A stretch of 64,000 bases of DNA. It comes from a bacterium. Its GTDB lineage: Bacteria > Planctomycetota > Planctomycetia > Planctomycetales > Planctomycetaceae. A program made the position numbers and the translations under genes. Location: NCBI GenBank assembly GCA_016125225.1, contig WGME01000034.1:1-64000 (forward strand). The letters run 5' to 3'. Positions 2,755 to 23,334 of this stretch are shown here, piece by piece. Each line of letters opens with the position of its first letter. Positions within the stretch are counted from its first letter, which is position 1. The notes under the pieces are model-generated. The model was not told the DNA's origin and made no database searches. It saw only the letters and a program-made list of their open reading frames with translations.

Positions 2755-2756
2755 TC

Positions 2757-2819: not shown

Positions 2820-2822
2820 TTA

Positions 2823-3128: not shown

Positions 3129-3138
3129 GAGCGACGCG

Positions 3139-4251: not shown

Positions 4252-4403
4252 GACCGACCGCCGTGTCTTCTGGAGGAATCCTAAAAGCCCGTTGCACCAC
4301 TGCAAGCCTGGCTTTCCGGGGGACGAAATCGCCCTGCCGCGGAAGCCGCAATTCTAGCAGAATTGAACGGGAAAATGGAGTCCAAATGTCGACCAGATGC
4401 GGC

Positions 4404-7112: not shown

Positions 7113-10100
7113 CTAGTTCAACGTTTGACGGTCAATCACCAGATCTTCCCAACGGATACCGTTCGGGCTCGCAGGACTATTGGACGTATCTTCCGTGTAA
7201 CTGAAGGTCGAAGAACTGCGGATTGTAGAGATGGTCGAACCATTCTTGATCAGCCATCGGACCTGGTCAACAACGCCCGAACGATCAATCAGAAAGACGC
7301 TGCGATATTCAGGGGTATCTTCGAGGCGTCCGCCAATCCGGTAGGCGGTTTTATTGTTGCCCGTCACGGCAGCGGCCTCGAAGAATTGCACGCCGACATA
7401 GACCACGAAGGTATTGCTACGGGTCGTTGTTGAGTTCGGCAATTTCTTCAACAACCGATTTTTGATGAGTGATTCATACTGGGCATTCTGATGTTCGACA
7501 GAGGTGCCGACTTCCAAAAGTTGCCGCGGATTGGTCAGCGTATCATCAGTAGGCAATGTTCGCCCAAAGATGCTGTCCCGAAGACTTGTAGCTCCATTGT
7601 GGAAGTTAAAACTCGAGGCACGGAAGGGCCGTGCCCCTGGTGCCCCCGGTGTGTGATAGTTGGTGACCGGGTCGATCGCCATCGTGGGGCCTCCCGTCGT
7701 GTTGCGATAAGAATCGCGGGCCGCCATGAACTCATACCACCAGAACCGCGATGCGTCATCTTTCCCGACTAGCAATGTCCCGGTGGGAGGAGCATGTAAC
7801 AGGCCTGGATCATCCAGGAGGCCCGCCCAAACCTGGGGATGACGGATCGTATTCACATTCAACAGTCCCTGAGTGAAAGGGACGCCGAAGCCATGATGGG
7901 GAAGATTGGTGGTATCACTCGTTCCCGGAGTGCCAAACCCGGTAAAGGCTCCGTTGGAATCATAAGCCAGAGTCTGCCGAGAATACGTTAACGCATCAGG
8001 ATGGCGGTGTTGCATCGGCTGGCGTTCGAAGAACTCGAGCACGCGGTGCCAGCGGTTCTGCTCTGCTGAAAAATCCTGACCCAAAAGCGATGTTGCAATC
8101 GGCTGATCTTCTGGCAAGGCCTTTAAATCAGGAATACGAAGCGTCGTGACATCTGGACCAAAGACTGGAATCAGGAGCAGTTCATCGACAGAGGTCAAGT
8201 CACGATCAAGATGATACTGCCAGTAGTTGTTGCCAGTTCCGGCACTCGGGGCATTTTCATTATCGTCATTCAAGGTGTTCTTACGCAGCGTGTTTTCCAT
8301 GCTCGCATCGTAGGAATAGGTGCTGTTGTTGGCAGCTTCGTTGATGCGATCAAAGGGTTCAGGACGTTCTTGAGACTGCAGATTCGACAGTCGATTATTG
8401 GGATTATTGGTCGCGATCTCTGCTGTCCCATCCGTCTGTTGGAGGGCAAAAGTCTGTACGGGAATTGAGGCCATCTGATCAACCTGAATCCAGGGGTTTT
8501 CAGTGATCGAGAGTTGCGGTAGAGACGGGTTCTGCCTACGCCACAAACGCACATTGATCGCCGTGGCGGTGTTCGTGCGCGGCAAGAGATCGCCGGGAGC
8601 CGTCCCGTTCTCAAGTTCAAACCGATTCGCATGCCGGGAATCGACCAGGTCGAGATTACAACGGGTGGGATAATCAGTGGCCATTGACCCTGATGTTGGA
8701 GGCGTATCACTCGCGAACGCAGGGGCGATCAGTTCAAAATTACTGTCGCCGTCTGTGTCGACGCGAAAATCACTCGGCCGATTTCCGCCACCCGAAAACG
8801 TTGTCACCGCGGTCGTGGAGCCAATCGTGTAACGCGCTCCAGGATTGACCGTGCCAGAATTGGTGTTGAACGAGAAGGAATCGATCGGAACCTGCGCGGC
8901 GGACGGGCCTTCCGTCAGTTCGACCCGCCAGATGCCGGTTTCATATGACGTGGAGACAGACGTTGTGAGGTTGACAGTAAGCGGTGAGGGGTTCTTCAAT
9001 TCGATGAAGACAAAGTTATGGGAATTCGTGCTCATGTCATCATCGTTCCACAACGTCCGCATGTTGTCGCCACCCGCCGGTGGCTCCCGGATGACAAGCG
9101 CTTCATTGATGGTGAGATCCTGCCGTTCGATGCCATAGACCGTCCGCTCCGCATCGTTGATTGGCGTAGTCCAGCCATCAGAAAGATCGCTGTCGAACTC
9201 GAATTTGCTGATCACATGATCGGGGTCCATCGCATCGACATAATTCACCGCGAATTGAGCCATGCGACGTGCCAAAGCAAGAGCAGTATCAGGGTCCGAA
9301 TCCAACGCGGTGATGGTGGGATTCTTCGAAACCGGCTGACCCAGCAGGTAGAGCAGCACATACATGTCTCGCGCCATGGCCTGGCGGTCGGCCCGGGCAT
9401 TGGTTTCGGTCGTGTTGAGGGCTGTCAGCGAGGTATCCGTCGAATGATCCCGCAAACGTCTGAAATACAATGTGGTCCCGCTGATATCGATCAAATGATT
9501 CAGGCTGAGCTTCCATTGATTGGAAGGCGGGTTGCCGCCGTACACTTTTCCGGGATCAAGATGCAACAACCGCCGTGTCGCATTGCGGAAGGGGTCGGTG
9601 TTGTTATCGAACAGAGTGCTGCTGCCGAAGCGTGGTGGGAAAAAGACTTCCGGCAAGCCATCCCCTGTCACATCGTCAGCCGACGAAATCTGTCCATCGG
9701 AATTACTGTCCCAGTAAGTTTCCAGGAACTGCGAAGTGGAAACTGCGGACTGCGGCCAGCGGCGCACGGGAAGACTGTATTCGCGACGATCGCTGCTGAG
9801 TGTGGTGAAACGCTGGCGGATATCACGAGCATTGGACGCCGCCCGAAAGTTTGCCGGGGCCAGGTCGAGCACACGTGCCGTGGTGGCGGTCCGAGTCGCA
9901 TCAGTTGTCGAGAGCTGCAGGGCCAGAGTGTCGTGCGGGGCCAGCACACTGTCGTTATTGACGGCATTCGTGAGTTGTGGCTGAGCGGTTCCCGTTTTAG
10001 CGTAAGCAATCACGCGCGGATCGCTGATCAGTTCCGAATCATCATCGGTGAGATGATCAGCCGTAGAACCAATCGGCATCAGTGTCGACTGGTAGGGATT

Positions 10101-11873
10101 GTTGGCCGACTGGGCGAGTTGCACATCATACGCACCGGTGCCAGTGTTCAGACGGGTATGGAAATTGTTGTAGATCAGCCAGCGATCATTGTTCGCGGTC
10201 GCTGAGTTCCAGAAGTAAAGCGTTTTGCCATAGGAATCGCTGGCCAGATTGAAGTATGAGGTGAAACCGCGGTAGTCGAGCGGGAGTCCGAACGCGGGTG
10301 ATTCATAAAGGTTTTGATTGAGCGTGAAGTTACGGTGATTGTCATCGAGACCAGTCACCGCAGGCCACGGAAGATCACTGACCGCACCCGAAGTAAAAAA
10401 AGTCTGTCCATCGGTTTCAGCACCAAATTTACCCCTCATCACCGAGGTAATCGCGCTGCTTAGACCAGTGCCTGAACTCATGCCCTGAGCAATCTGAATG
10501 GCAAAATTGGGTCGGCCCATAGTCAGGTAGAAACGTTCGATATTTGCTAATTCCTGAATGTTATTGGGCGGTCGACTGGGGTCGACACCCATCCATCGCA
10601 GAAACTGAGTATGTTGCTGCAAGTCACTGCTGGACATTGTTGTCGGGTCGGCTGACAAAGCATACACGGGGTTAATCTCATGCGGCCCAAGACCCAGGTC
10701 GGAACTCTTCAGAAAGCTATTGTTCCCGAAGGAGTTTGCCGGAGGAGTGGGCATGGGATTGGTATTCAAGGTGCCCTGCGAGGCGTTCAGATTGATCAAC
10801 CCGTTGGCATCAACGAGATGGATCGCGAAAAGCGGCACCATCAGTTTGCCATCACCGCGCCGTTGCGGAGGAAAATCCATGTCCATCAGGATGGATTCTT
10901 TGATACCGTCACCATCGAGGTCGACATCCAGATTCCATGTTTCGGCAGTCGCATTGGTGGATGAGTTAGTCCAGATTCCCATGGCTCCGGTTGAAGTGGA
11001 ACCGTCGGCATTGAGCGGTTGGAAAGGAAACGGTTTCCGCAATCCCAGACTCTGATAATCTGCGCTGCCGACAAAGCGTTTCACTGCGCTGCCTGAGACA
11101 GTGACAGTATTGCCATCGGGACCGACATAGACATGATCGGGATGCGGCCGCATCGTTCGGGCGGGATAGGTTGAATTGTTATACCAATCAGAAACCGTTC
11201 CCCCCCCGTTGCGCAAATATGCTGGACGATGGAATGAGGGGATGATTACCAGCCGCTCGGAACCCCCGGCGGTTGCTGGTTGAGCCATCCCCCGGTACGA
11301 CAGAAACAGGTGATTGATATCGGGGTAGGTGTAATCAACATCGGGGTCTGGCAGGGTATTAAAACCTTTGGATGTGCCCCAGTTCGTCCCACTATTAGCG
11401 GACGGAGAGTCATTGAATTCCAGCAGAAAGTTGTCATCAGCGGTACCGTTGTAGTCTTGATCGACACCCGGTTGGCCCGTCATGGTGTTACTGAGATAAA
11501 CATGCACGCCGGTGCCATTAAAGGGCACGCCATCGCGGCCAAGCATGTTGGGGACGAGCGAATGACGGCCACCCCAAAGCGCACTGTTGAACTGGGAATC
11601 ACTGGGGCCAAGAAGCAATTGCTTCAGTACGAAATCGTTCAGGCCATCACGTTCTAATGCCGGCGCAGTAAGCACCCGCGTTTCCGAACTGAATGCCGTC
11701 GCCGACGCTTGTTCCTGGGCCGAGAAGGTATAGAACAGCACGCCGAGCAATGCGAGCAGGCCCATCAACGTGAGCACGATGAGCAAGGTAGACCCGCGAC
11801 GATCGGCGTGAGATGTTCGTGAACTCTGCCGCCGTGAATGCAGCACTTTTTGATATCGTTGGTTCGCAGTCAT
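7113..11873 (-). CDS. Giant GspK/PilX-like pseudopilin protein
   Basis: At 1586 residues this is several times longer than the usual GspK (about 330). The N-terminus RRGSTLLIVLTLMGLLALLG (about residues 25-45) is a pilin-like hydrophobic stalk that lacks the usual Glu at mature position 5, as GspK and PilX do. The rest is a long extracytoplasmic region rich in Asn, Thr, Asp and Ser, with repeated calcium-site-like DxDGD stretches such as DVDLDGDGIKES and DSNSDGQISSADD. It is the last gene of the pseudopilin series, 87 bases after the J-like gene, with GAGG five bases before its ATG. By analogy GspK sits at the tip of a pseudopilus. The large size suggests a tip adhesin or scaffold, but that is inference. 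Confidence 0.75.
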   Translation of the reverse strand: MTANQRYQKVLHSRRQSSRTSHADRRGSTLLIVLTLMGLLALLGVLFYTFSAQEQASATAFSSETRVLTAPALERDGLNDFVLKQLLLGPSDSQFNSALWGGRHSLVPNMLGRDGVPFNGTGVHVYLSNTMTGQPGVDQDYNGTADDNFLLEFNDSPSANSGTNWGTSKGFNTLPDPDVDYTYPDINHLFLSYRGMAQPATAGGSERLVIIPSFHRPAYLRNGGGTVSDWYNNSTYPARTMRPHPDHVYVGPDGNTVTVSGSAVKRFVGSADYQSLGLRKPFPFQPLNADGSTSTGAMGIWTNSSTNATAETWNLDVDLDGDGIKESILMDMDFPPQRRGDGKLMVPLFAIHLVDANGLINLNASQGTLNTNPMPTPPANSFGNNSFLKSSDLGLGPHEINPVYALSADPTTMSSSDLQQHTQFLRWMGVDPSRPPNNIQELANIERFYLTMGRPNFAIQIAQGMSSGTGLSSAITSVMRGKFGAETDGQTFFTSGAVSDLPWPAVTGLDDNHRNFTLNQNLYESPAFGLPLDYRGFTSYFNLASDSYGKTLYFWNSATANNDRWLIYNNFHTRLNTGTGAYDVQLAQSANNPYQSTLMPIGSTADHLTDDDSELISDPRVIAYAKTGTAQPQLTNAVNNDSVLAPHDTLALQLSTTDATRTATTARVLDLAPANFRAASNARDIRQRFTTLSSDRREYSLPVRRWPQSAVSTSQFLETYWDSNSDGQISSADDVTGDGLPEVFFPPRFGSSTLFDNNTDPFRNATRRLLHLDPGKVYGGNPPSNQWKLSLNHLIDISGTTLYFRRLRDHSTDTSLTALNTTETNARADRQAMARDMYVLLYLLGQPVSKNPTITALDSDPDTALALARRMAQFAVNYVDAMDPDHVISKFEFDSDLSDGWTTPINDAERTVYGIERQDLTINEALVIREPPAGGDNMRTLWNDDDMSTNSHNFVFIELKNPSPLTVNLTTSVSTSYETGIWRVELTEGPSAAQVPIDSFSFNTNSGTVNPGARYTIGSTTAVTTFSGGGNRPSDFRVDTDGDSNFELIAPAFASDTPPTSGSMATDYPTRCNLDLVDSRHANRFELENGTAPGDLLPRTNTATAINVRLWRRQNPSLPQLSITENPWIQVDQMASIPVQTFALQQTDGTAEIATNNPNNRLSNLQSQERPEPFDRINEAANNSTYSYDASMENTLRKNTLNDDNENAPSAGTGNNYWQYHLDRDLTSVDELLLIPVFGPDVTTLRIPDLKALPEDQPIATSLLGQDFSAEQNRWHRVLEFFERQPMQHRHPDALTYSRQTLAYDSNGAFTGFGTPGTSDTTNLPHHGFGVPFTQGLLNVNTIRHPQVWAGLLDDPGLLHAPPTGTLLVGKDDASRFWWYEFMAARDSYRNTTGGPTMAIDPVTNYHTPGAPGARPFRASSFNFHNGATSLRDSIFGRTLPTDDTLTNPRQLLEVGTSVEHQNAQYESLIKNRLLKKLPNSTTTRSNTFVVYVGVQFFEAAAVTGNNKTAYRIGGRLEDTPEYRSVFLIDRSGVVDQVRWLIKNGSTISTIRSSSTFSYTEDTSNSPASPNGIRWEDLVIDRQTLN

Positions 11874-11960
11874 GAGTCCCTCCTCGCGGCCCGCAAGGAC
11901 AAGGCGTTTGGGTCAAGGGGTATAGCGATGTGTCGGATCACAGGCACTATGCATCATCGA

Positions 11961-13736
11961 TTAATTGCTCGGCGAGTCCTGTAGCGACTGCACGATGGTG
12001 ACTTGCCGAATGCGACCATCGACTTGGCTTTGGTAAACAATCGTAATTTGGATGGCCGTGATGGGCAGGGCATTTCCCGAACCATCGACGGGTCGGAACG
12101 GTGGATCACTGTCCGTTTCACCGCTATCAATCATGCCGTTGCCGTTCAGGTCGGCTGAAATGGTCGTGTTGGGATGCCAGGTATCAAATCGATAGCGATT
12201 GTCTGTGGTGTTGGTACTACCGGTGTTGCCATCCTGAGCATAGACAGCGTTCAAGCGGTCACTGGCATTGAAGGAGATGTTGTTCGCATCGAGATCATCT
12301 CCCAGATCGACGAATGAATTCGAATTCGGGTCGAGAATCTGCACATCGAACGCCAACACATTGGGGAGGACAATATCATCGCCGCGGCGGACTGCAGGAC
12401 TGTCTTCATAGTCATCAATCACATGCGACAATCCCGAACTGGCTGTCAGAGTGCTCGTGTAAGGATTGTTCGTAGGCATGTAACCTGGATAGGCAAAGGC
12501 CGTGCTCGCTGTTTCCTGTGTCAGGAAACGACCGATGAACCCAGAATCATCCGTCAAATTATGTGTTGTGGAATTCAGGTCAAAGTACTCTCGCGGTAAA
12601 CCAGTATTGGGGTTATGGCCAAATCGCAGGGCGGGAATGCCCAGGCTGATGGGAATGGTGGTTACCGGTGAGGTGGTGTCATTGATCACCAACTGTTCGC
12701 CATCGCTTCCGTTGTAAAGAGATGGTTCAGTGCTATGAAAGTAAACCCCGGCTCCTTCGGTTCCCGACGAACTGGTCTTGCCGGGGAAGTAGAAAGCCGA
12801 GTAATCAAAATCACGCCAGAAGGTAGAGTTCGTATCGCTGTTGCGGGGATAGTTGCCGCTGCTGGAACTCGACGTGTAGATCGTCCGCGATCCGTCCCGG
12901 TAATGGGGTTGGGCGGCATCAAGGGAATTCGCATCACGAATCAAGAGCATCCGGCGATAGAGCGTACCTGATCGCAGAAAGTAGCAAACCTCGGCGGCAG
13001 AACTGGCTCCCAGCAGATTTCCTCCCGTACCATCATCGAACTCGGGTTCATTCACGAAAGAGACGTAACCATCCGTTTCCGCTGTATCAGGGATATCAGG
13101 CACGACATTGAGCGTGGAGCCCGAGACGCTCGATACCTGATAAAGACCGTTATTTGTGTAGCCATCGCCATCACTGTCGGAGGAGTCACTAACCCAGATC
13201 CAGTCACCCATTGAGATTTGACTCGCGGTTGGATTCGACCCCAGGTTGATCGAGCTGGTGTTGAAACCACTGATGCTCAACCGCGAAGCCGTGCCGAGAT
13301 AGTTCGAAACACCGACGCGCGAATCGGCCCGACCGATGTAGGGAGCTTCTCCCGACTGCTGTTCATTGCGTGTGACGCGCACGGTGAATTGCAGCACATC
13401 GTCGGTCTTGTCGGCGGGATCATTCTCGGCGTAATAGAAGTAGCCCTGTCGCAAGTCGAGACGAGCATTGGGCGAGCGGGTGTCTTCGCCATTGAAGAAT
13501 GGCAGGACGAGCCGCATCGACCGCTTGTCCAAATCGCCGCGGATCATACCGGTAATCATGCGGGCCTGTTGATCGTTTTCAGCGATGCCCTGCTGCACGC
13601 TGATCGAACCTGCCGCCATCTGAAAGATTTGGGCAAACATGGTCATGATCAGCAGGACGAGTGCCACTGCAACGAGCATTTCAACAAGTGTAAAGCCCGC
13701 AGTCGGTCGGTGATGTTGGCTTTGACGTGGGGTCAT
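11961..13736 (-). CDS. GspJ/PilW-like pseudopilin, enlarged
   Basis: 591 residues from ATG 13736, which overlaps the stop of the preceding gene as ATGA. The prepilin signal TAGFTLVEMLVAVALVLLIM lies near residue 13, with Glu at mature position 5. GspJ and PilW proteins are normally 200-350 residues; the extra length is an extracytoplasmic domain with Asp-rich loops (SDSSDSDGDGYTNNG, LNGNGMIDSGETDSD) that look like calcium-binding turns. Its place as fourth pseudopilin before the K-like gene fits J. The expected role is a minor pseudopilin near the tip of the fibre. Confidence 0.75.
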   Translation of the reverse strand: MTPRQSQHHRPTAGFTLVEMLVAVALVLLIMTMFAQIFQMAAGSISVQQGIAENDQQARMITGMIRGDLDKRSMRLVLPFFNGEDTRSPNARLDLRQGYFYYAENDPADKTDDVLQFTVRVTRNEQQSGEAPYIGRADSRVGVSNYLGTASRLSISGFNTSSINLGSNPTASQISMGDWIWVSDSSDSDGDGYTNNGLYQVSSVSGSTLNVVPDIPDTAETDGYVSFVNEPEFDDGTGGNLLGASSAAEVCYFLRSGTLYRRMLLIRDANSLDAAQPHYRDGSRTIYTSSSSSGNYPRNSDTNSTFWRDFDYSAFYFPGKTSSSGTEGAGVYFHSTEPSLYNGSDGEQLVINDTTSPVTTIPISLGIPALRFGHNPNTGLPREYFDLNSTTHNLTDDSGFIGRFLTQETASTAFAYPGYMPTNNPYTSTLTASSGLSHVIDDYEDSPAVRRGDDIVLPNVLAFDVQILDPNSNSFVDLGDDLDANNISFNASDRLNAVYAQDGNTGSTNTTDNRYRFDTWHPNTTISADLNGNGMIDSGETDSDPPFRPVDGSGNALPITAIQITIVYQSQVDGRIRQVTIVQSLQDSPSN

Positions 13737-15073
13737 GGTACGTTCCTCAGACCCAGGGGATAAACTTCCAGAACGCCCCGGTAAAAGACCAGTCGTGGGC
13801 TGCTGAGATTCGCTGGTGGTGGCACGAGGTCGCGATCGACCACGATGGCCGCCGTCCCCGCGTCCAGGTTTTCTGTGTACAACACGATGCGATACCACTG
13901 CCCCTGGACCACATCGAGTAGATATCCGCCATTCTTCAGGAACGGATTGGGGTCACTCCCGGCTGACCAACTGACGGCGATGGTCCGCTTGTCATCGGAA
14001 CCGGGCCACCCGAGTTCGCTGTTATTGTCGGTTGTGCCATCCTGATCATCATCGACTCCGGCGACGCCATTGTTGGTGTCGTATCCTGTACTAGTCGCCT
14101 GGCCGCTGGAATTGACCGAGTAAGTCACTGATGTCCCGGCATTGCTGGGGTCGCCATAGACGAACTCGTCTTGTGGTCGGAAGGAACGTTCAAAGAACGT
14201 CACCACATCGACGGCAGCGGTTCCTTCCCGATTTTTACGCACCGTGAGCAGCCACGTATAGCGGCGCTCCTGCACTTCAACTTTCACTTTTGAAGCGGTG
14301 AAGTTGGTCGGCAGCGGCAGCACGTTACTGCCCGTTGTATCCTGCCAGATCAATTCGTCGTTTGAGCCATTGTTATCGGTAACTTGCTGAAGACCTTTGA
14401 TAGCGGCCTGTTTGCCCGTGGCATCGACCAGAATCATGCGATACCGCGGGTTGTTCGGGTTGGCTGCATTGCGAAGTTGGCCTGTGGTCAGATTGGTTAG
14501 ATCGGTCCCATCAGGAATGAAAACCCGGGTGGCGTTCTGTGAAGCGACGCGGCTTTCAAAAACGGGCAGCCAGACATCGGGCAACATCGCCAGATTCTCA
14601 AATTGCGCGACGGTCGGAGCCGAGTTTCCGATTCCACTGAAGCGAGGCAATAGACCTAGACTGGTTTGAGAGGTCGCCAGAGCTCGACCGATAGGATCAA
14701 CCAGATACGCTCCGGTATCGGGGATGCTATCACCCAGCCAGTCATTGCCCCAGCCTTGTTCGCTGGTGTCGGAGACATCGCCATCGGCGTTCAGATCAAT
14801 GTCGGCCCGATGTTCCTGCTCGTCGCTATCCTGATCGGGATCGTGAATCAAAGCCGGAGCGATTTCGATCATCGCTTCGGCGTTCTGCCGGAGCAATGTG
14901 GAGTTGGTCAGTTGCGTCGCCTGAATGGAACGCAGCATCGCGATCGGGAAAAGCGTGGCCAGCGAGACCACACCAATACTCATCACCAGTGTGGCAACCA
15001 GCACTTCGCTGAGCGTGACACCAGTGCGAGTGTCAGGCCAAGAGGCTGCAGACCGGGAGCGTGAGGTTATCAT
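13733..15073 (-). CDS. GspI/PilV-like pseudopilin, enlarged
   Basis: A 446-residue protein with a prepilin signal RTGVTLSEVLVATLVMSIGV near residue 17 and a following hydrophobic stalk. The V-T-L-S-E form of the cleavage site resembles PilV/GspI. The remainder is an extracytoplasmic domain with Asp-rich turns (DADGDVSDTSEQ-like and DDDQDGTTDNNSE). Both ends overlap neighbours by four bases (ATGA at 15070-15073 and at 13733-13736), so translation is probably coupled. The role is inferred from gene order: a minor pseudopilin of the same fibre as its neighbours. Confidence 0.72.
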   Translation of the reverse strand: MITSRSRSAASWPDTRTGVTLSEVLVATLVMSIGVVSLATLFPIAMLRSIQATQLTNSTLLRQNAEAMIEIAPALIHDPDQDSDEQEHRADIDLNADGDVSDTSEQGWGNDWLGDSIPDTGAYLVDPIGRALATSQTSLGLLPRFSGIGNSAPTVAQFENLAMLPDVWLPVFESRVASQNATRVFIPDGTDLTNLTTGQLRNAANPNNPRYRMILVDATGKQAAIKGLQQVTDNNGSNDELIWQDTTGSNVLPLPTNFTASKVKVEVQERRYTWLLTVRKNREGTAAVDVVTFFERSFRPQDEFVYGDPSNAGTSVTYSVNSSGQATSTGYDTNNGVAGVDDDQDGTTDNNSELGWPGSDDKRTIAVSWSAGSDPNPFLKNGGYLLDVVQGQWYRIVLYTENLDAGTAAIVVDRDLVPPPANLSSPRLVFYRGVLEVYPLGLRNVP

Positions 15074-16110
15074 GGTGTGGCCACCTCCCCGACTTCGGCG
15101 AAGAGATACGGGTCATCGGCCTGCAGGTTCGCCGGGGCCGTGGTATTTGTCACATTGACAGGATGCGAGGTCACTCGGCCCGTGAGTGCCGCCACCGAAA
15201 CCAGAATCTGGTCGTTCTCGACGGTGAGCGTATCCGGCGTATTCGGATTGTTCGCCGGGACAAAGGGCGGATTGTATGTGCCGGAATTGCGACCCGTGAT
15301 CTGGGTCCATTTGTCGGAATCCCCCTGATCGGCGATCAGCAGGTGAATCTGTCCGACGGCGGCGACATCGCCAATAGCTACCCCGCGGGCGGAGAAGAGG
15401 ATGTCCATCAAGCCGCTATAGCTGCCGGTGAAGGAACTCGGTGTCCATGCGCTGGGAAGTTTTGAGCCATCAAGGTCGATGACCACACCGGCAGGAAGTG
15501 AAACCGGTTCGGCACCAGGCAAGACACCGGGGGCCAATTCCAAGGCATACTTCACCCGCACGCTACTCCCCGCGAGATCAGCACAGGGATGATCGAGCAC
15601 CACGAGCGAATGCGAGCCGCTGGTGATCGGAGTTGAAGCAAACCGATACCAGTTGCCTGAGTAGCGGGGGATCTCCACACGACTGCCGGGCCCGACGAGG
15701 CCACGGCCAGCCCACGTCACCCAATCGGTACTTCCTGCCAGCATGACAACACGGCCAGTGACGTCACCGGTGAGTGAGGAATCAAACGTCACCTGACCAT
15801 CGGTAAAGAGTTCCGGCGACCCGATGTAGATCATCCCTGTGGCTTGATGGGGATTATTCGGGTCGAGCAGTAACCGCACACCATAAGGTTGACGGGAATA
15901 GATGGCCCGATCACGCGCACCGGCCAGATAGGATTGCACCTGGCGTGCCCCCCCCTTCACGCGGTCAGACGTTAAGGCAAAGTTCACGGAAAGCAGTGTG
16001 ATCACCGTCAGCAACAGGAGAATGCTGACGGCTACCAGCAACTCGATCAGCGTAAAGCCGCGCGGCTGACGCGATTGCCTGCTCAGCGGGATGCAGGGAG
16101 ATCCACGCAT
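15070..16110 (-). CDS. GspH/FimT-like pseudopilin
   Basis: A 346-residue protein with the prepilin signal [20 protein letters not shown] near residue 17. The next segment, VKGGARQVQSYLAGARDRAI followed by YSRQPYGVRLLLD, is typical of GspH/FimT, where the helix packs against the beta sandwich. Its start overlaps the stop of the upstream gene by one base (TGATG at 16110), and its end overlaps the I-like gene. It is longer than the usual 160-200 residues. It is expected to be a minor pseudopilin exported through the Sec pathway and cleaved by a prepilin peptidase that is not in this window. Confidence 0.78.
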   Translation of the reverse strand: MRGSPCIPLSRQSRQPRGFTLIELLVAVSILLLLTVITLLSVNFALTSDRVKGGARQVQSYLAGARDRAIYSRQPYGVRLLLDPNNPHQATGMIYIGSPELFTDGQVTFDSSLTGDVTGRVVMLAGSTDWVTWAGRGLVGPGSRVEIPRYSGNWYRFASTPITSGSHSLVVLDHPCADLAGSSVRVKYALELAPGVLPGAEPVSLPAGVVIDLDGSKLPSAWTPSSFTGSYSGLMDILFSARGVAIGDVAAVGQIHLLIADQGDSDKWTQITGRNSGTYNPPFVPANNPNTPDTLTVENDQILVSVAALTGRVTSHPVNVTNTTAPANLQADDPYLFAEVGEVATP

Positions 16111-17171
16111 CAGTTCCCTCCCCCGGCTTGAGTGTTCAGGTTCGTGAGGTTATCGGTGATCAGTTCAATATCGGCCGCAGTCTCGTTCTTAAGCTGCGCT
16201 CGCCGTGACTTGGCCGCTTGAGCATCCTGGCCCGACGAGAACGAGTTCATGGGGCTGGCGAGTCCCAATTCCTTGTCAGGACCCGCTGACAGAATGAGTG
16301 GCGTGGAAAAGGTATCGACGGTTTGGAAGTTGAGTTCGAACTGCGTCCACGTGTTCTGATACTGCGAGGCAGTCAGCGAACCCCAGGAACGATTCAAGCG
16401 CCCGAGACGATCATCGGAATCGATTCGCAGGGGATGCACGCGAACGCCAGCCGTAGAGAAACGGACGTTTGGAGCGAGGATGAGACGGGCCTGAGCATAC
16501 AGACTGGCCACCGTGGAGGTCGGTGTAACGGCCATATTGCCATCGACATCGGGTTCACCAGAATCGAGCGAACCATTCCCGTTCAGATCTTCACCCTGCC
16601 AGAAGAGTCGCGTCGGCGAGCGGTAATACCGCAACGGTTCGCCCCAAGCATCGACGAAATAAGTGATTCCGTTCTCGGTCTTTGTCTCTGAAGAAGTGAA
16701 GCTCGTTTCATCCACGGTGGGAGTTCCGAAGGTGGCTCCCCGTGTGATGATGGAATAGAGGTAAGCGGCGCTCTCAGCATTCGGCTCGGAACTGGTGAGT
16801 GTCGAAATCTGATCAAACGGAGGTTTACTGTTATCTGCCGATTGCTGTGGGAAATAGAACCGATAAGCCTGTTTTATCGCGAGTGTTTTGCCAATGTCCA
16901 AATTGCCTGCTGTCCCACTGTCGACCAGACGCTGAGCGGCGTCGGTGAAATCTTGCTTGCGTAAACCCTGCAGGCGGTCTTTCAGGATCGCATCGATTTT
17001 GGAAATGGTGGCTCGCGTCGCAGAGACCCGTGCAGCCTGCACGTAATTAGCAAGGACCATCGCAAACGTACTCAGCACAAGGGCGATGATGCCGATCACG
17101 GTCAGCAATTCCAGCATCGTGAACCCCTGCCGTTTGAGGGCATGGCTTGTGCCGATCTGCAGTTGTCTCAT
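16110..17171 (-). CDS. Prepilin-type pseudopilin, subtype unclear
   Basis: A 353-residue protein with the prepilin signal RQGFTMLELLTVIGIIALVL near residue 15 and Glu at mature position 5. The C-terminal two thirds has no motif I recognise beyond one Asp-rich turn (DLNGNGSLDSGEPDVDGN) that resembles the calcium loop of GspG. It sits between the G-like and H-like genes, so it is either a second major-type pseudopilin or an additional minor one. It is the extra member compared with the classical G-H-I-J-K order. Confidence 0.7.
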   Translation of the reverse strand: MRQLQIGTSHALKRQGFTMLELLTVIGIIALVLSTFAMVLANYVQAARVSATRATISKIDAILKDRLQGLRKQDFTDAAQRLVDSGTAGNLDIGKTLAIKQAYRFYFPQQSADNSKPPFDQISTLTSSEPNAESAAYLYSIITRGATFGTPTVDETSFTSSETKTENGITYFVDAWGEPLRYYRSPTRLFWQGEDLNGNGSLDSGEPDVDGNMAVTPTSTVASLYAQARLILAPNVRFSTAGVRVHPLRIDSDDRLGRLNRSWGSLTASQYQNTWTQFELNFQTVDTFSTPLILSAGPDKELGLASPMNSFSSGQDAQAAKSRRAQLKNETAADIELITDNLTNLNTQAGGGN

Positions 17172-17219
17172 GTGTCGCCTCCTCGCCGGTTGACCCTGTT
17201 CGAACCGTGAGTGTCGAAA

Positions 17220-18254
17220 TTAGGGACGCAGCATGCCGCCGTCGTGGAAGTTGGTGATATTGTCATACTCGCCAGAGCGTTCTGTTAACGTTGTTTCGGA
17301 AACGTAAGTCGACGAACTCGGCGTGCCGTTAAACAATTCAAAAGCAGGCAATCGATCATCACCAGTCGCGCTGGCATCAAACGGTCCGCCGGTGCCATAG
17401 ATTTTGTCAAATCCCGGCGAGATGATCTGAAAGCTTTTGTTCTTATAGGGGACCGGTGCCGAGAGTGTGACATTCTTATAGTCGGTCCCACCCCCCCCGT
17501 TGAACGCGGTGGATTCGTTGGGTTGCCCCTGGCTGTACCAGACCACAAAGCCTGGACTACCAAATTCCGCCGTGTTGTACCCGGCGCCGTCATAGCTGCT
17601 GAAATATTGATAGGGATTGGTCTGGCTGGGAATTGGGTCGATATATTCGGGGAAGTCGTCGGAATCGAGATCACTGAAGCGTTCGGTTTTGAATTCAAAG
17701 AACGGACCCTCGCGGTTTCCACCCGAAGCAAAGGGATCCAGCGGGTTCTTGGAAAAGCCGTTGGGTGCTGCACCACCACTGCCGTCTCGCAGCAGGATGC
17801 CTCCCAGGAAAAAGACCAGGCACTCACCCCCTGTCAAAGTCAAGGTGTTGTCGGTCATATCGCCATCACCATTCAGGTCACGGTTTTTCGTGAAATCAAA
17901 CTGCGGCCACATTTCGCGAATCAAAGCACGGCTGGCAATGGCATCAGAACTCGGACTGGTGGCGGCCCAACCGTTGTTAGCATCGGGGTCTTCCCACAAC
18001 ACAATGCGGCTCGGTGGGTCCATCTTGAAGCGGTTACGGAACTGCGCAATCGCAGCTTCCATTTGACCAATGTCCGTTTTCACTTGAGTAACCACAACAT
18101 TACGGCGAGCGGAAGCAATCGCAGGGAGCAACAGGCTGATCAGAATCGTGATCACCACAATCACAATCAGCAGCTCAATCAGGGTGAAGCCTGCCTGAGC
18201 GTGGCGGGCACCACGGCAGGGGTCTGAAGCCGGGTTGTGACGTGATCGCAACAT
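17220..18254 (-). CDS. GspG-like prepilin (major pseudopilin candidate)
   Basis: A 344-residue protein with a classical prepilin signal [20 protein letters not shown] near residue 20. After the stalk, TDIGQMEAAIAQFRNRFKMD followed by PPS is the GspG-type helix in which a repeated sampling of residues leads to a conserved Pro. An Asp-rich insertion (RDLNGDGDMTDNT) follows. It is the first pseudopilin after the GspF-like gene (125-base gap), the place where GspG is usually found, so I take it to be the main fibre subunit. It is more than twice the usual GspG length (about 140). Confidence 0.75.
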   Translation of the reverse strand: MLRSRHNPASDPCRGARHAQAGFTLIELLIVIVVITILISLLLPAIASARRNVVVTQVKTDIGQMEAAIAQFRNRFKMDPPSRIVLWEDPDANNGWAATSPSSDAIASRALIREMWPQFDFTKNRDLNGDGDMTDNTLTLTGGECLVFFLGGILLRDGSGGAAPNGFSKNPLDPFASGGNREGPFFEFKTERFSDLDSDDFPEYIDPIPSQTNPYQYFSSYDGAGYNTAEFGSPGFVVWYSQGQPNESTAFNGGGGTDYKNVTLSAPVPYKNKSFQIISPGFDKIYGTGGPFDASATGDDRLPAFELFNGTPSSSTYVSETTLTERSGEYDNITNFHDGGMLRP

Positions 18255-18378: not shown

Positions 18379-19644
18379 TTACGACAAGTCGTTCAGCAGC
18401 TTAATCAGGGGCATGAACAACGCGATGACGATGAAGCCGACGATGAGACCCAGCACCACCACCATCAGTGGTTCGAGCAGGTTCACCAACGCTTCCACCA
18501 TCACCGACACTTCTTCGTCGTAGACATCGGCCACCTTGTACAACATGTTGTCCAAGGCCCCGGTCTCTTCACCGACGTCGACCATATTGACGACAATGTC
18601 GTCAACCGTGCGGGTTTCTTTCAGGGGAACCGCCATGGTTTCCCCTTCGCGAATCGCCGCCGAGATATGTTCAAAGGCGTTGTAGAACACACGGTTGCCT
18701 GCGGTGTCCCGCGTGATGTTCAAGGCTTCGAGAATTGGCACACCCGAGGCGATCAACGTGCCGAGCGTTCGACACGTTCTGGCCACAATCGATTTTCGTA
18801 AGATGGGCCCTAACAGCGGGAAGCGCAGGGATATCCAGTCGACAATATAGGCCCCCGTTTTGTTCTTTTTGACAATCTTGACAATGAGCCATAATGCGAA
18901 TGGGATCGCCGGCCCCAGGTACCAGTAATTCACGACACCATCGCTGATGCCGATCAGCGCGACCGTGATGCCCGGCAGATCAGTATCGAAATCTTCGAAG
19001 ATCTTTTTGAACTTCGGAATGATGTAATACATGATGAAGCCCACGATCAACGTGGCGACCGTGATGACCGCACACGGATAGATCATGGCCCCTTGCACTT
19101 TGCGCTTCAGGCTTTGCTGACGTTCCTGAAACTCGGCGAGACGTTGCAGAATGACTTCGAGTGCACCCCCGGCCTCACCGGCTTTCACCATGTTGACGTA
19201 GAGATTGTCGAACGCTTTAGGTTGCCGCGACATCGCTTCCGAAAGCGTGCTGCCCGATTCAATGTCTTCGATGACCCCCATCAGCGAGTTCTTAAGGGCA
19301 CCCGGTTTGGCCTGGCCTTCCAGAATTCGCAAGCTGCGGAGAATTGGCAGACCGGCGTCCTGCAGGGTGGAAAGCTGGCGTGTGAAGGCCGTCAGCTTTT
19401 TGCCACTCACGCCGCCGATGGTAAAGGTCTTGCCCTTCTTCTTGGCGGCGGCCTTTTTCTTGCTGGCATCGGCCTTGGTGGCTTCTTTGGTTTTCTTCTT
19501 GGCGCGACCCTTCTCGGCGATCTTCGTGACGAAGAACCCCTTTTCACGGATCTTGGCCTGGGCTTCCTGCTCTGACCCCGCGTCGATTGTGTCTTTCACT
19601 TCGAGGCCGGTGTTGTCCATCGCCTCGTATTGGTAAGTCGGCAT
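18379..19644 (-). CDS. pilC: Type II secretion/type IV pilus inner-membrane platform protein (GspF/PilC)
   Basis: A 421-residue platform protein that couples the assembly ATPase to pilin polymerisation. It begins MPTYQYEAMDNTGLEV, typical of GspF/PilC. A lysine-rich stretch (residues 43-72, AKKKTKEATK and KKKAAAKKKGK) links to the first T2SSF domain (FTRQLSTLQDAGLPI, about residue 85). Three membrane segments lie near 185, 240 and 395, and the second T2SSF domain contains RTLGTLIASGVPILEAL. The end GLIVGFIVIALFMPLIKL is the usual C-terminal membrane helix. The gene lies 92 bases after the GspE-like gene and 125 bases before the first pseudopilin. The lysine-rich linker is unusual. Confidence 0.93.
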   Translation of the reverse strand: MPTYQYEAMDNTGLEVKDTIDAGSEQEAQAKIREKGFFVTKIAEKGRAKKKTKEATKADASKKKAAAKKKGKTFTIGGVSGKKLTAFTRQLSTLQDAGLPILRSLRILEGQAKPGALKNSLMGVIEDIESGSTLSEAMSRQPKAFDNLYVNMVKAGEAGGALEVILQRLAEFQERQQSLKRKVQGAMIYPCAVITVATLIVGFIMYYIIPKFKKIFEDFDTDLPGITVALIGISDGVVNYWYLGPAIPFALWLIVKIVKKNKTGAYIVDWISLRFPLLGPILRKSIVARTCRTLGTLIASGVPILEALNITRDTAGNRVFYNAFEHISAAIREGETMAVPLKETRTVDDIVVNMVDVGEETGALDNMLYKVADVYDEEVSVMVEALVNLLEPLMVVVLGLIVGFIVIALFMPLIKLLNDLS

Positions 19645-19736: not shown

Positions 19737-21440
19737 TTATTCCATATCATCCACCACGGTTTCACGCACGATTTCGTCAATCGTGGTGACGCCGTCAAAG
19801 ATCAATTTCAGTCCCGATTCCCGCAGCGTGATCATGCCTTGGGTACGGGCAAAGTTTCGCAGATCATCGACATTGGAATTCCCGGTGATCATGTCACGAA
19901 TTTCATCGGTAACATCGAGCAGCTCATGAATCCCTGTCCGGCCTTTGTAGCCCGAGTTATTGCAACGCGGGCAACCGCGGCCGTAGTAGAATTTGTATTG
20001 CCGGGCCTGTTGCACGGGCAGTTGCAGTTCCATCAGCAGGTCATCGCTGGGGTCGAACTGCGTCCGGCATTCCACGCAAATCTTCCGCACCAGCCGCTGT
20101 GCCAGAATGCCTTCAAGGCAGGCGGTAATCAGGAACGGTTCGATCCCCATGTCCCGCAAGCGAGTAATAGCCGACGGGGCATCGTTCGTGTGCAGCGTGC
20201 TGAACACGAGGTGCCCCGTGAGCGCACTTTGCACGGCGACTTCCGCTGTTTCATAGTCACGAATCTCGCCGACGAGAATGGTGTCCGGATCGTGCCGCAG
20301 AATCGCCCGCAACACGGTCGCGAAGGTCACGTCGATATCGGGATTCACCGGAACCTGAATCAGGCCGTCGATGTCATATTCCACGGGGTCTTCCGTGGTG
20401 ATAACCTTGGTTTCGATATCGTTGATTTCGTTGAGAGCCGAATACAACGTAGTGGTTTTGCCCGACCCGGTGGGACCCGTCACCAGCACAATACCGTTCG
20501 GCCGCTTAATCATATTGCGGAATTGCGACAGGTTGTGGGCATCCATCCCGATCTTGTTCAAATCGAGTTGCACCACAGTCCGATCAAGAACCCGCATAAC
20601 CACGGATTCGCCGAACATGGTCGGCAGCACACTCACCCGCAAGTCGACTTGGTTACCACCGACGTTGAGCTCGATGCGACCGTCTTGAGGCAACCGGCGT
20701 TCGGAAATGTCGAGTTCCGACATGATCTTGATACGGCTGATGATGGAGTTCGCCAGATGCCGTGGCGGCGGGACCATCTCGTACAACATGCCGTCCGCTT
20801 TCACGCGGACTTTGAATTCGTCTTCAAAGGGCTCAAAGTGAATGTCGCTCGCCTGGTCTTTAATGGCGAGCAGCAGAATCATGTTGAGCAATTTACGGAT
20901 CGGGGCCGCATCGGTCATTTCGGCTTCAGCCGACAGGTCGAACCCGCGCTGTTCTTCGTCTTCCTGACCCTCTTCCAGGCCGGCAATGACCGATTCGATG
21001 CTCTCTTCGGAATCGGCGTAGTAACGGCGAATCGCCGCTTCCACGTCTTTGTGATTCGAAACGGTGCCGCGGACATCGACCCCCAGGAAGTTTCTTAGGT
21101 CATCGAGGGCGCCGACATTCTGCGGGTCGGCCATGGCGATTGTCAGCACATCGTCTTTCACGGCGATGGGCATGATTTTGTACAACTCGGCCATGGTCAT
21201 GGGGACCAGTTCCAGGGCCTTCGGAGTGATCGTGGTCTCACCGAGATTCACGATCGGCATGCCCCACTGTTCTGCCAGGGCTTCCGTCACCTGGGCGTCG
21301 GTCACCATCCCCATGCGGATGGCCACCTGACCGATGACTTCGCCGGGACTCTGCTTCTGCTCTTCGAGCACGTCCCACAGCTGATCTTCGGTGAGATAGC
21401 CAAGATCGACGAGAATCTGTCCGAGCTTGCGTTGCGCCAT
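19737..21440 (-). CDS. pilB: GspE/PilB-type assembly ATPase (copy 1)
   Basis: A 567-residue hexameric AAA-type ATPase that powers pilin or pseudopilin assembly. An MshEN domain occupies about residues 1-140, with LGQILVDLGYLTEDQLWDVL at the start. The Walker A VTGPTGSGKTTTLYSALN lies near residue 320, the Asp box and Walker B DTILVGEIRD near 387, and the His box with HTNDAPSAITRL follows. The zinc tetracysteine CVECR ... CPRCNNSGYKGR lies near 455-490. It directly precedes the GspF-like gene. A second ATPase of similar design is encoded at 23335-25029. Confidence 0.93.
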   Translation of the reverse strand: MAQRKLGQILVDLGYLTEDQLWDVLEEQKQSPGEVIGQVAIRMGMVTDAQVTEALAEQWGMPIVNLGETTITPKALELVPMTMAELYKIMPIAVKDDVLTIAMADPQNVGALDDLRNFLGVDVRGTVSNHKDVEAAIRRYYADSEESIESVIAGLEEGQEDEEQRGFDLSAEAEMTDAAPIRKLLNMILLLAIKDQASDIHFEPFEDEFKVRVKADGMLYEMVPPPRHLANSIISRIKIMSELDISERRLPQDGRIELNVGGNQVDLRVSVLPTMFGESVVMRVLDRTVVQLDLNKIGMDAHNLSQFRNMIKRPNGIVLVTGPTGSGKTTTLYSALNEINDIETKVITTEDPVEYDIDGLIQVPVNPDIDVTFATVLRAILRHDPDTILVGEIRDYETAEVAVQSALTGHLVFSTLHTNDAPSAITRLRDMGIEPFLITACLEGILAQRLVRKICVECRTQFDPSDDLLMELQLPVQQARQYKFYYGRGCPRCNNSGYKGRTGIHELLDVTDEIRDMITGNSNVDDLRNFARTQGMITLRESGLKLIFDGVTTIDEIVRETVVDDME

Positions 21441-21598: not shown

Positions 21599-22720
21599 TT
21601 ACTCGTCGTCATCCTCCTCATCTTCATCTTCCGGCTCATCATCAAGCAGGCCTTTCTTGGCCCGCATGATCCGGGCTTTGAGTTCACCGGGATTATTAGA
21701 CTTCATGACGACCGACTCTTCCTCGCACAACCCGTTCTTCCAGAGGCTGAACAAGGCATCGTCGAGCAGTTGCATCCCGAACTTCCGCCCGGTCTGAATC
21801 GACGAGTTAATGCGGTACGTCTTGGCTTCACGAATCAGGTTCGCAATAGCAGGAGTAACCACGAGCAGTTCGTAGGCGGCGACCATCCCTTTCGGAATGC
21901 GTCCCAGCAGGGCTTGCGACAGGATGCCGATGATCGCCACGGACAACTGCGTTCGAATCTGTTCCTGTTGGTTAGTGGGAAACACGTCGATGATACGGTC
22001 GACCGTCCCTTGTGCCCCGGTGGTGTGCAGCGTGCCGAACACCACGTGGCCGGTTTCGGCGGCGGTGATTGCCGAGGAAATCGTCGCCAGGTCACGCATT
22101 TCGCCGACCAGAATCACGTCGGGGTCCATACGCAACGCACGGCGAAGTGCTTCCGGGAAGTCGGGAACATCCACCCCGATCTCCCGCTGGTTAATCGTGC
22201 ACTTCTTATGCTTATGGTAATACTCGATCGGGTCTTCGAGTGTGATGATGTGGTGATCGATGGTGTCGTTCAGGTAATTGATCATGCTGGCCAGACTGGT
22301 CGTCTTTCCCGATCCCGTGGGACCGGTCACCAGAAACAGACCGCGTGGTCGTTTAATCAGGTCGCCGATAATGGGCGGCAAACCGAGTTGTTCAAACGAC
22401 AGAAACTCGTTCGGAATACGCCGCAGCACCATGCCGATATGGCCGCGTTGCTTAAACACGGCCACACGGAAACGAGCTTTATCGCCGAACGCAAAACCAA
22501 AGTCGGTACCCCCGACCTCCTGAAGTTCCTGCTGATTCCGTTCCGGCGTGATGGACTTCATCAGCGAAACGGTGTCTTCGGGCTCCAGAACCTTGGTTTC
22601 CAGTCTCACCATATGACCGCTAACGCGGACCACTGGAGGTTGACCCGTGGTGATGTGCAAGTCGCTGACGCGCTCACGCACCACTGTCTCCAGCAGCTTA
22701 TCGATCTGAACTGTCGCCAT
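21599..22720 (-). CDS. pilT: PilT-type twitching/retraction ATPase
   Basis: A 373-residue ATPase of the PilT family, which retracts type IV pili. From ATG 22720 it begins MATVQIDKLLETVVRERVSD, followed by LHITTGQPPVVRV, the PilT N-terminal PAS-like domain. The Walker A VTGPTGSGKTTSLASMINYL lies near residue 137, the Walker B ILVGEMRDLATI near 200, and the PilT signature AIANLIREAKTY near 290. The tail is a run of Asp and Glu (about 15 of the last 17 residues), which is unusual. The frame is open to 22786 but lacks domain support there. It lies between the two GspE-like genes and makes retraction possible, which a pure type II secretion system would not need. Confidence 0.93.
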   Translation of the reverse strand: MATVQIDKLLETVVRERVSDLHITTGQPPVVRVSGHMVRLETKVLEPEDTVSLMKSITPERNQQELQEVGGTDFGFAFGDKARFRVAVFKQRGHIGMVLRRIPNEFLSFEQLGLPPIIGDLIKRPRGLFLVTGPTGSGKTTSLASMINYLNDTIDHHIITLEDPIEYYHKHKKCTINQREIGVDVPDFPEALRRALRMDPDVILVGEMRDLATISSAITAAETGHVVFGTLHTTGAQGTVDRIIDVFPTNQQEQIRTQLSVAIIGILSQALLGRIPKGMVAAYELLVVTPAIANLIREAKTYRINSSIQTGRKFGMQLLDDALFSLWKNGLCEEESVVMKSNNPGELKARIMRAKKGLLDDEPEDEDEEDDDE

Positions 22721-23334
22721 CTCGTATGATCTCGCCCGCTGAGTTCTCTCGATTCGGCGGTCACCAGGAGAGCTCTGATGCCGCACTCAGAATAGATGTG
22801 CGGCACTAGATATAACCCACGCAGGGACCGAAGTCATGTCTCCCGAAGGCTCTTCCGCCCGATGACGGCGAGAACCCTGTGATTCTTAACGTTGAACTCA
22901 CCAGCCGTTCCACCGTAACGATGAGACGCACTGGCCATGATGGTGAAGAAAGTCACGACGGACGGGAACGGGCGGGCAGACCTGATTTCCGCAATTGACG
23001 GCTGATGAGGAGTATGAGGAATACCGTCTGCGAGCATTTCGGAATCAGGCGTGCTGCTCGACGACATTCTTCGGAAGAGATTTCGCGAACTCAAGCACGC
23101 GCACAAAAAACGGAACATTGTGCGTCAATAGCAATTCCGCTCTGCACCCTGAAATCACCGTGAGCGACCGCCGGGAGATCTCTGAATAGACCCCGGAAAT
23201 GTTACCCGGACGACGAAGCCTGATGTGTTGCAAAATGAGTCAGCGAGAGTGCGAGGAGATGTGTACTTATGAATATGTCTCTCGGCTGAGATGCCAGTCG
23301 AGTCAACATATCCCTTTGATCACATCCCCTGAAA
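22721..23334. other. Intergenic region between pilT and the second GspE-like gene
   Basis: 614 bases, the largest gap in the pilus locus. Short open frames on both strands (up to 94 codons) have neither a recognisable product nor a convincing ribosome binding site. It should hold the pilT promoter and the end of the transcript of the upstream ATPase gene. I see no clear terminator or repeat. Confidence 0.45.

What the first reader, a model, noticed from the sequence alone, without database searches (positions are those of the whole stretch)
7113..18254. Pseudopilin series with oversized subunits, ending in a 1586-residue GspK-like protein
Seen: six consecutive prepilin-type proteins of 344-1586 residues in G-(extra)-H-I-J-K order, with TGATG/ATGA overlaps across I, J, H and the extra gene, and repeated Asp-rich DxDGD loops. 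Established: classical pseudopilins are 140-350 residues; GspK lacks Glu5 and caps the fibre. Inference: a planctomycete variant of the type II secretion pseudopilus, possibly with an adhesive or calcium-dependent tip, similar in spirit to the Verru_Chthon cassette of related phyla.
Basis: partly seen in the sequence, partly recalled or inferred. Interest (0 to 1): 0.55.

Follow-up and report, generated by a model that had tools for sequence, protein, structure and literature searches.

The report
Giant pilus-tip protein of planctomycetes
Nearly all bacteria of one planctomycete class carry a pilus-building gene cluster that ends in a giant version (about 1,300 to 3,200 residues) of a normally small pilus-tip protein, a candidate for the fibres with which these bacteria are thought to catch large molecules.

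Summary
On the minus strand, six prepilin-type genes (G, extra X, H, I, J, K; 344, 353, 346, 446, 591, 1586 residues) follow two PilB/GspE-like ATPases, a PilT and a PilC, with TGATG/ATGA overlaps X/H, H/I, I/J. It is not this genome's type II secretion system, which lies elsewhere with smaller subunits; PilT is well above its curated cut-off. I read it as a retractable type IV pilus with oversized subunits. The 13 K proteins scanned match no curated GspK or Verru_Chthon model, yet a predicted model of a short relative aligns with two GspK structures (Z 9.5, 9.0; next entry 3.8) across its length: a GspK fold swollen by insertions, one resembling a lamin-tail Ig domain. K occurs in 173 of 198 class genomes, reaching 3217 residues; ten negatives inspected were divergence or contig ends. 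A genome with the recalled replicon lengths of Planctopirus limnophila has the cluster. Tip position and ligand binding are inferred; catching polymers is my functional guess.

The parts
23335..25038 (-). E1: PilB/GspE-like assembly ATPase, 567 aa
   Evidence: TIGR02533 614.9 bits (cut-off 630.25), TIGR02538 612.5 bits (cut-off 675.65)
21599..22786 (-). PilT-like retraction ATPase, 395 aa
   Evidence: TIGR01420 434.7 bits against cut-off 319.1; orthologue (65-92% identical) in 26 of 41 K loci examined
19737..21440 (-). E2: second PilB/GspE-like ATPase, 567 aa, with N-terminal c-di-GMP motif
   Evidence: TIGR02538 626.5 bits (cut-off 675.65), TIGR02533 616.3 (cut-off 630.25); NF053729 c-di-GMP motif 55.5 bits (cut-off 38)
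18379..19644 (-). F: PilC/GspF-like platform protein, 421 aa
   Evidence: TIGR02120 392.6 bits (cut-off 424); upstream of K in 9 of 12 fetched loci, 71-80% identical in 8 and 54% in L042
17220..18254 (-). G: oversized GspG-like pilin, 344 aa, probable major subunit
   Evidence: TIGR01710 3.7e-9 and N_methyl 1.2e-7, N-terminal part only
16110..17171 (-). X: extra pilin, 353 aa
   Evidence: TIGR02532 21.3 bits (cut-off 16.3); found between G and H in many relatives
15070..16110 (-). H: GspH-like pilin, 346 aa
   Evidence: TIGR01708 1.4e-7 and TIGR02596 1.4e-7, N-terminal part only, both under their cut-offs
13733..15073 (-). I: PilV/GspI-like pilin, 446 aa
   Evidence: TIGR02523 8.1e-6, under its cut-off
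11961..13736 (-). J: GspJ/PilW-like pilin, 591 aa
   Evidence: N_methyl 8.5e-6; start set by the ATGA overlap with I
7113..11873 (-). K: giant GspK-fold pilin, 1586 aa, no Glu5, probable tip subunit
   Evidence: Profile family in 173 of 198 class genomes; model of a relative aligns to GspK chains 6utu_C and 9a1f_T, Z 9.5 and 9.0
8289..9206 (-). Inserted Ig-like domain of K (residues 890-1195), lamin-tail-like
   Evidence: Model pLDDT 84.2, pTM 0.84; ranks 2-12 of the structural re-alignment are lamin entries; PF00932 weak matches in 10 of 54 members
10908..10928 (-). Asp-rich loop of K (DVDLDGD, residues 316-322)
   Evidence: D316, D318, D320, D322 invariant in 13 of 13 aligned K proteins; DxDxDGD in 31 of 54 K, 50 shuffles mean 0.54, at most 3

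Best explanation
The cluster builds a retractable type IV pilus with unusually large subunits. Two PilB-type ATPases (one with a c-di-GMP-binding motif) and the PilC platform polymerise the 344-residue G pilin, and PilT draws the fibre back (inferred from the families). X, H, I, J and K are minor pilins. K, which lacks Glu5 and has a GspK-like fold, would be the first subunit in and so the tip, on an I-J-K initiation complex as in GspIJK. Unlike ordinary GspK, K carries roughly 1,000 to 2,900 extra residues inserted between the elements of that fold, including a lamin-tail-like Ig domain and Asp-rich loops; these would stand out at the tip and bind what the pilus catches, most likely extracellular polymers or surfaces. 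Shown: gene order, families, class-wide conservation, fold similarity in predicted models. Inferred: retraction, tip position, ligand binding, and any link to the pili-like fibres of crateriform structures.
For: PilT over its cut-off beside two PilB/GspE-like ATPases and a PilC; PilT orthologue in 26 of 41 K loci, most of the rest ending before it. A separate T2SS operon in the same genome. K in 173 of 198 class genomes; at least two pilin genes upstream on the same strand in 33 of 33 and 48 of 52 loci with 5 kb upstream. K fold: 6utu_C Z 9.5, rmsd 3.5, 186 residues aligned; 9a1f_T Z 9.0; next entry 3.8. Five profile stretches shared with T2SS GspK lie in the same order in both. Insert: lamin entries at ranks 2-12. 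A PilM gene in 79 of 79 class genomes. The cluster in the genome that I take for P. limnophila, a species with 12-nm pili-like fibres to which gold-dextran binds (PMC5394234, section 10 read).
Against: No curated GspK model matches the 13 K proteins scanned, and plain Foldseek found no significant PDB match for either model (best E 1.8 and 0.05). The model that matches GspK is of a Gemmatales relative (L195, 26% identical to the window K), mean pLDDT only 58.2 with 563 of 1200 residues under 50. Of the five stretches shared with T2SS GspK only the N-terminal helix is significant (3.7e-6; the others 0.08 to 0.4). Only one of the eleven lamin rows exceeds Z 8. The two ATPases score as well against GspE as against PilB, and F is nearest GspF. 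No secretin and no PilM lies on this contig. In L039, L040 and L121 no ATPase was found although several kb upstream of the pilins were held, so pilins and motor are not always together. No experiment seen ties these genes to a fibre.
Confidence: 0.66

Rival explanations
1. A second type II secretion-like system: the oversized pseudopilus is a periplasmic piston for exporting proteins, and PilT is an accessory.
For: GHIJK order; the model of a K relative has a GspK fold; F is nearest GspF and the ATPases score close to GspE.
Against: The genome has another T2SS with smaller subunits; PilT over its cut-off is not a T2SS part (general knowledge); no secretin on this contig. GspC, L and M were not searched for.
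Confidence: 0.16
2. A DNA-uptake (competence) pilus: the giant tip binds DNA. This would be another use of the same machine.
For: Type IV pili with PilT commonly take up DNA (general knowledge); nothing here tests it.
Against: The tip protein varies widely in size (1276-3217 aa), which seems unusual for a DNA receptor (inference). Competence genes were not looked for.
Confidence: 0.1
3. K and its partners form a static wall or membrane-spanning structure, for example part of the crateriform 'press studs', and not an extruded fibre.
For: Crateriform structures join outer and inner membrane (PMC5394234, passages); presence in most of the class fits a structural part.
Against: PilT implies retraction; the prepilin leaders and ATPases imply assembly from the inner membrane (inference from the families).
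Confidence: 0.07

Closest known systems
GspK / XcpX, tip pseudopilin of the type II secretion system
   Same: Prepilin leader, no Glu5, last gene of the G-H-I-J-K series; the model of a relative aligns over 186 of 261 residues of XcpX, Z 9.5; shared stretches lie in the same order
   Different: 1276-3217 aa against 540 aa in this genome's own GspK; no match to T2SSK or NF037980 in the 13 members scanned; beside PilT
Type IVa pilus
   Same: PilB-like, PilT and PilC-like genes together with a pilin and minor-pilin set; PilM elsewhere in the genome
   Different: Subunits two to three times the size of this genome's T2SS subunits; GspK-type last minor pilin; PilM in a separate locus followed by two proteins that match no family
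Verru_Chthon cassette (TIGR02596, TIGR02599, TIGR02600)
   Same: A prepilin cassette with a giant member (TIGR02600 has 1296 positions); weak N-terminal matches of H to TIGR02596 and J to TIGR02599; the K of one class relative (G281, locus L045/L067) matches the first 61 positions of TIGR02600, 24.0 bits
   Different: All far under the cut-offs (TIGR02600: 332.3 bits); no TIGR02600 match in the 13 K proteins scanned; 11 of 59 relatives match it at E 0.001, none over the cut-off and all in the first 52-69 positions
Modular pilins (PilB, PilC of Streptococcus sanguinis; CofB)
   Same: An extra functional module carried on a pilin for display by the pilus (PMC8179133, passages)
   Different: In PilB, PilC and CofB the module hangs at the C-terminus, and the most extreme multi-domain case named in that survey has 860 residues; here the insertions appear to lie inside a GspK-type core
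Lamin tail domain (PF00932)
   Same: Ig-like fold of residues 890-1195; lamin entries Z 6.8-8.4
   Different: Under the Pfam cut-off in the window protein (18.9 against 34.3 bits); inserted into a pilin

Membership tests
GspK | Prepilin leader with hydrophobic helix and no Glu5 | tested here: met
   Window K has Ile5. Of 57 K proteins, 43 read automatically have V, I or L at position 5; 13 more show no Glu there in the printed N-terminus (read by eye); in one (L121) the motif was beyond the printed part
GspK | Match to curated GspK models (Pfam T2SSK, T2SSK_1st; NF037980) | tested here: not met
   None at E 0.1 in 13 of 13 members; this genome's T2SS GspK does match T2SSK_1st and NF037980
GspK | Pilin sheet with inserted alpha-domain (GspK fold) | tested here: met
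   On relative L195, not on the window protein: 6utu_C Z 9.5, 9a1f_T Z 9.0; low mean pLDDT 58.2; plain Foldseek gave no significant match
GspK | Last gene of a G-H-I-J-K series | tested here: met
   Window and many relatives; in L194, L199 and L210 a J-like gene lies after K
Type II secretion system | Secretin GspD encoded with the pseudopilins | tested here: not met
   Nine secretin matches in this genome, none on the window's contig
Type II secretion system | GspC, L, M with the pseudopilins | not tested
   No search for these families was made
Type IVa pilus | PilT retraction ATPase | tested here: met
   TIGR01420 434.7 bits, cut-off 319.1; orthologue in 26 of 41 K loci
Type IVa pilus | PilB assembly ATPase and PilC platform | tested here: inconclusive
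   Strong matches, all under equivalog cut-offs; the ATPases tie with GspE and F is nearest GspF
Type IVa pilus | PilM, N, O and secretin PilQ | tested here: inconclusive
   One PilM locus and seven secretin matches over the cut-off elsewhere in the genome; the two proteins after PilM match no family; PilN and PilO models were not searched genome-wide
Type IVa pilus | PilY1 tip adhesin | not tested
   No search made
Verru_Chthon cassette | Match to TIGR02600, TIGR02599, TIGR02596 over the cut-offs | tested here: not met
   Window K none; J 21.8 of 256.5 bits; H 31.8 of 70 bits; K 0 of 13; 0 of 59 genomes over the TIGR02600 cut-off, though one relative's K matches its N-terminal 61 positions
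Verru_Chthon cassette | Fold of protein A the same as K | not tested
Lamin tail domain | Pfam PF00932 over its gathering score | tested here: not met
   Window 18.9 of 34.3 bits; 10 of 54 members match at E 0.1, best 1.1e-4
Lamin tail domain | Lamin-tail Ig fold | tested here: met
   Ranks 2-12 are all lamin entries, Z 8.4-6.8 (only the first over 8); rank 1 is a DUF4876 protein, Z 8.7; the next other row is 5.8

The most novel reading that the evidence does not exclude
G to K are the molecular identity of the 12-nm pili-like fibres of planctomycete crateriform structures: an oversized, PilT-retracted pilus whose giant GspK-fold tip, with a class-wide core and lineage-specific insertions of up to about 2,900 residues, catches polysaccharides and pulls them into the enlarged periplasm.
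Probability: 0.3. Interest if true: 0.86.

Novelty: new variant of a known kind. Interest (0 to 1): 0.62.

Why it matters
How planctomycetes bring large polysaccharides into their periplasm is open; [quoted passage not shown] This cluster is a specific candidate, present in most of the class and in a genome that I take for the tractable model P. limnophila, so the question becomes directly testable. It would also be an extreme case of module insertion in a pilus-tip subunit, up to 3217 residues, in which the additions seem threaded into the GspK core instead of appended.

Tried and rejected
Rejected: K as an artefact or read-through ORF (one open frame in relatives). Rejected: the cluster as this genome's T2SS. 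Uninformative: PDB sequence search with the K profile (one ribosomal protein, E 0.8), and a lone NCBIfam match of one K member to a beta-lactamase model (0.024). A first GspK profile comparison scored high because a K protein (L045) had slipped into the GspK set; I discarded it and repeated it without L045 and L051 (and without L053, a copy of this genome's own GspK). The motif-order count (16 of 54 K, 2 of 7 GspK, none in 20 rounds of shuffled or in reversed K) used patterns that I drew after seeing the alignments, and misses the window protein; I give it no weight.

Foldseek alone returned no significant PDB match for either model; the GspK and lamin matches come from re-alignment by VIA-align 2 of Foldseek's ranked list (296 chains, 997). 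In one search rank 1 is a DUF4876 protein (4q1z, Z 8.7, rmsd 6.1), not a lamin. K of the loci L054, L056, L057 and L066 shares with the class profile only the N-terminal helix significantly (4.9e-8) and a weak colinear C-terminal stretch (6.4e-4), so homology along the length is likely but not shown. My ORF picker hides some genes under longer antisense ORFs; the window PilT was itself left out of the comparison set for that reason, and repeats the ATPase comparison with all ORFs. In one search J was taken one residue too long.

Literature: searches gave no listing or passage that describes this cluster or giant GspK-like proteins in planctomycetes. They cover open-licence PubMed Central papers only; of the papers listed I saw passages of six and one whole section, and did not open others that mention type IV pili and planctomycetes, such as PMC11131199 and PMC6461901. 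The Verru_Chthon comparison did not go beyond the curated models.
Full report
Where it lies. The window is the first 64 kb of one contig of a planctomycete genome of 6.35 Mb. On the minus strand, reading from 25,038 down to 7,113, come a PilB/GspE-like ATPase, a PilT, a second PilB/GspE-like ATPase, a PilC/GspF-like protein, and then G, X, H, I, J and K. A DUF1559 pilin (5464-6801, 445 aa) follows K.

Check of the observation. The J start that makes the last overlap is at 13736, giving 591 residues. Sizes are about 1.7 to 2.9 times those of this genome's own T2SS subunits (G154, H203, I155, J292, K540). In the loci held the medians are G 327 (53 proteins), X 364.5 (40), H 414 (48), I 465.5 (46), J 580 (67); these are proteins matching a window subunit at E below 1e-15, not freed of duplicates, some cut by locus ends or with a wrong start. 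Asp-rich loops are clearly enriched in K and X, weakly in I and J, not in G or H.

What machine. PilT scores 434.7 bits against a cut-off of 319.1. Both other ATPases score about equally for PilB and GspE, under both cut-offs, and F is nearest GspF, also under its cut-off. The second ATPase has an MshE-type c-di-GMP motif (55.5 bits, cut-off 38). Of 41 K loci examined for it, 26 have a PilT orthologue (65-92% identical), lying between the two ATPases where both are in the stretch; in most of the other 15 the held stretch or contig ends first, but L039, L040 and L121 show no ATPase although several kb upstream of the pilins are held. The genome has its own T2SS operon on another contig, with a GspK recognised by T2SSK_1st (2.6e-18) and NF037980 (4.6e-25). 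PilM occurs once, on another contig, as a 740-residue protein, and 79 of 79 class genomes have a PilM. None of the nine secretin matches lies on the window's contig. I therefore read the cluster as a type IV pilus whose secretin is not identified.

How common. With the single K sequence 13 of 245 phylum genomes matched; with a 13-sequence profile 28 of 245, in 14 of them only an N-terminal stretch of another long frame. In the class 173 of 198 genomes matched, 104 of 109 genera. A genome of the window's own family has the contig length 3,024,170 of Thalassoglobus neptunius KOR42, which NCBI places in class Planctomycetia. Of the 25 negatives 20 are listed by name; 17 of these 20 have an orthologue of F at 58-81% identity (in G354, G367, G382 and G404 over part of its length), as have 20 of 20 K-positive genomes searched beside them at 57-85%. 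I fetched 10 of the 17: three have a giant K that the first profile missed (1655, 1676, 1362 aa) and in seven the contig ends before K. Of 35 unnamed-genome loci, 33 have K with 5 kb upstream; 33 of 33 have at least two pilin genes upstream on that strand and 27 an ATPase or PilC. Of 77 named loci one has no recognised K and 52 have K with 5 kb upstream; 48 of 52 have the pilins and 43 an ATPase or PilC (any prepilin of the comparison set counted). The 57 distinct K frames over 1200 residues span 1276 to 3217 residues; four of them (L033, L054, L057, L066) come from genomes outside the class, and L033, the shortest, lacks the C-terminal part. L054, L056, L057 and L066 have the two ATPases and PilT (66-67% identical) upstream of a K of 1546-1601 residues; their K shares with the class profile a significant N-terminal helix (4.9e-8) and a weak colinear C-terminal stretch (6.4e-4).

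What K is. No Pfam family beyond a weak lamin-tail match, no relevant NCBIfam family and no PDB sequence explains it. Compared by profile with six planctomycete T2SS GspK, five stretches align, in the same order in both: helix (15-62), a stretch with the INLN motif (334-368), an ELL motif (1223-1241), an INxN motif (1333-1352) and a C-terminal stretch (1475-1500); only the helix is significant (3.7e-6), the others have E 0.08 to 0.4; the reversed K profile gave two stretches, E 0.2 and 0.9. A short complete relative, from a Gemmatales (L195, 1278 aa), was folded without its first 78 residues, with 59 sequences: mean pLDDT 58.2, pTM 0.68. Foldseek alone gave nothing significant, but re-alignment of its list put two GspK entries on top, 6utu_C (Z 9.5, rmsd 3.5, 186 of 261 residues, model 5-1200) and 9a1f_T (Z 9.0, 184 residues), with the next entry at 3.8. 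So the GspK core appears spread over the whole giant chain, with the extra residues inserted between its elements. This is the main structural finding, and it rests on a predicted model of a relative.

The insert. Residues 890-1195 of the window K fold with pLDDT 84.2 and pTM 0.84. Foldseek alone found nothing significant (best 0.05); on re-alignment rank 1 is a DUF4876 protein (Z 8.7, rmsd 6.1) and ranks 2-12 are all lamin entries (Z 8.4-6.8, one of them over 8), the next other row 5.8. PF00932 is also the only Pfam family that more than one member matches (10 of 54, best 1.1e-4; window 0.002, under the cut-off).

How it likely works (inference beyond the families). K, without Glu5, would start the filament together with I and J as GspK does, G would be polymerised beneath it, and PilT would retract it. 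The insertions would be displayed at the tip. Boedeker et al. 2017 describe 12-nm pili-like fibres on large crateriform structures of P. limnophila, and gold-dextran found primarily on such fibres of P. limnophila and G. obscuriglobus (PMC5394234, section 10 read whole, other passages seen). A genome whose two contigs have 5,423,075 and 37,010 bases, which I recall as the replicons of P. limnophila, carries the cluster from K (1611 aa, 498,927) up to an E1 that runs past the fetched end at 517,400, with a PilT 92% identical to the window's. In P. limnophila single deletions of three putative pilQ genes were viable (PMC11958385, passage), so deletion work is feasible. Whether these genes make those fibres is untested.

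Novelty. The idea of a giant last pilin is not new in the PVC group (TIGR02600, 1296 positions; that it stems from Verrucomicrobia is recalled), and module-bearing pilins are well known (PMC8179133, passages). New here, as far as my searches show, are the class-wide family without a curated model, the GspK core with internal insertions, the lamin-tail-like domain, the size range and the link to a PilT-bearing cluster. I rate it a new variant of a known kind.

Noticed in passing
19737-21440: The second PilB-like ATPase carries an MshE-type c-di-GMP motif over its cut-off, so pilus assembly may be under c-di-GMP control.
   Followed up: no
L043:3244-7032 and L079:5424-9668: The T2SS operon of this genome begins with a 1262-aa protein with five Secretin_N stretches but no Secretin domain match; a 1414-aa protein with six Secretin_N stretches and a Secretin domain lies on another contig.
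   Followed up: partly
L078:9869-16191: PilM of 740 aa followed by proteins of 574 and 743 aa that match no Pfam or NCBIfam family; PilM frames of 700-1000 aa are common in the class.
   Followed up: partly
L194, L199, L210: A J-like gene lies downstream of K instead of upstream.
   Followed up: no
L156, L169, L183, L194: K is split into two adjacent ORFs (1030+755, 224+1556, 244+1610, 991+872 aa), by frameshift, sequencing error or real splitting.
   Followed up: no
L039, L040, L121: Pilins and K without the ATPase genes in the several kb held upstream: the pilin and motor genes are not always together.
   Followed up: partly
5464-6801 and whole genome: A DUF1559 pilin often follows K; the genome has 70 N_methyl matches.
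   Followed up: no
226-4305: gyrB-like and dnaN-like ORFs lie next to the cluster on the same strand (named from sequence by eye, not by a family search).
   Followed up: no
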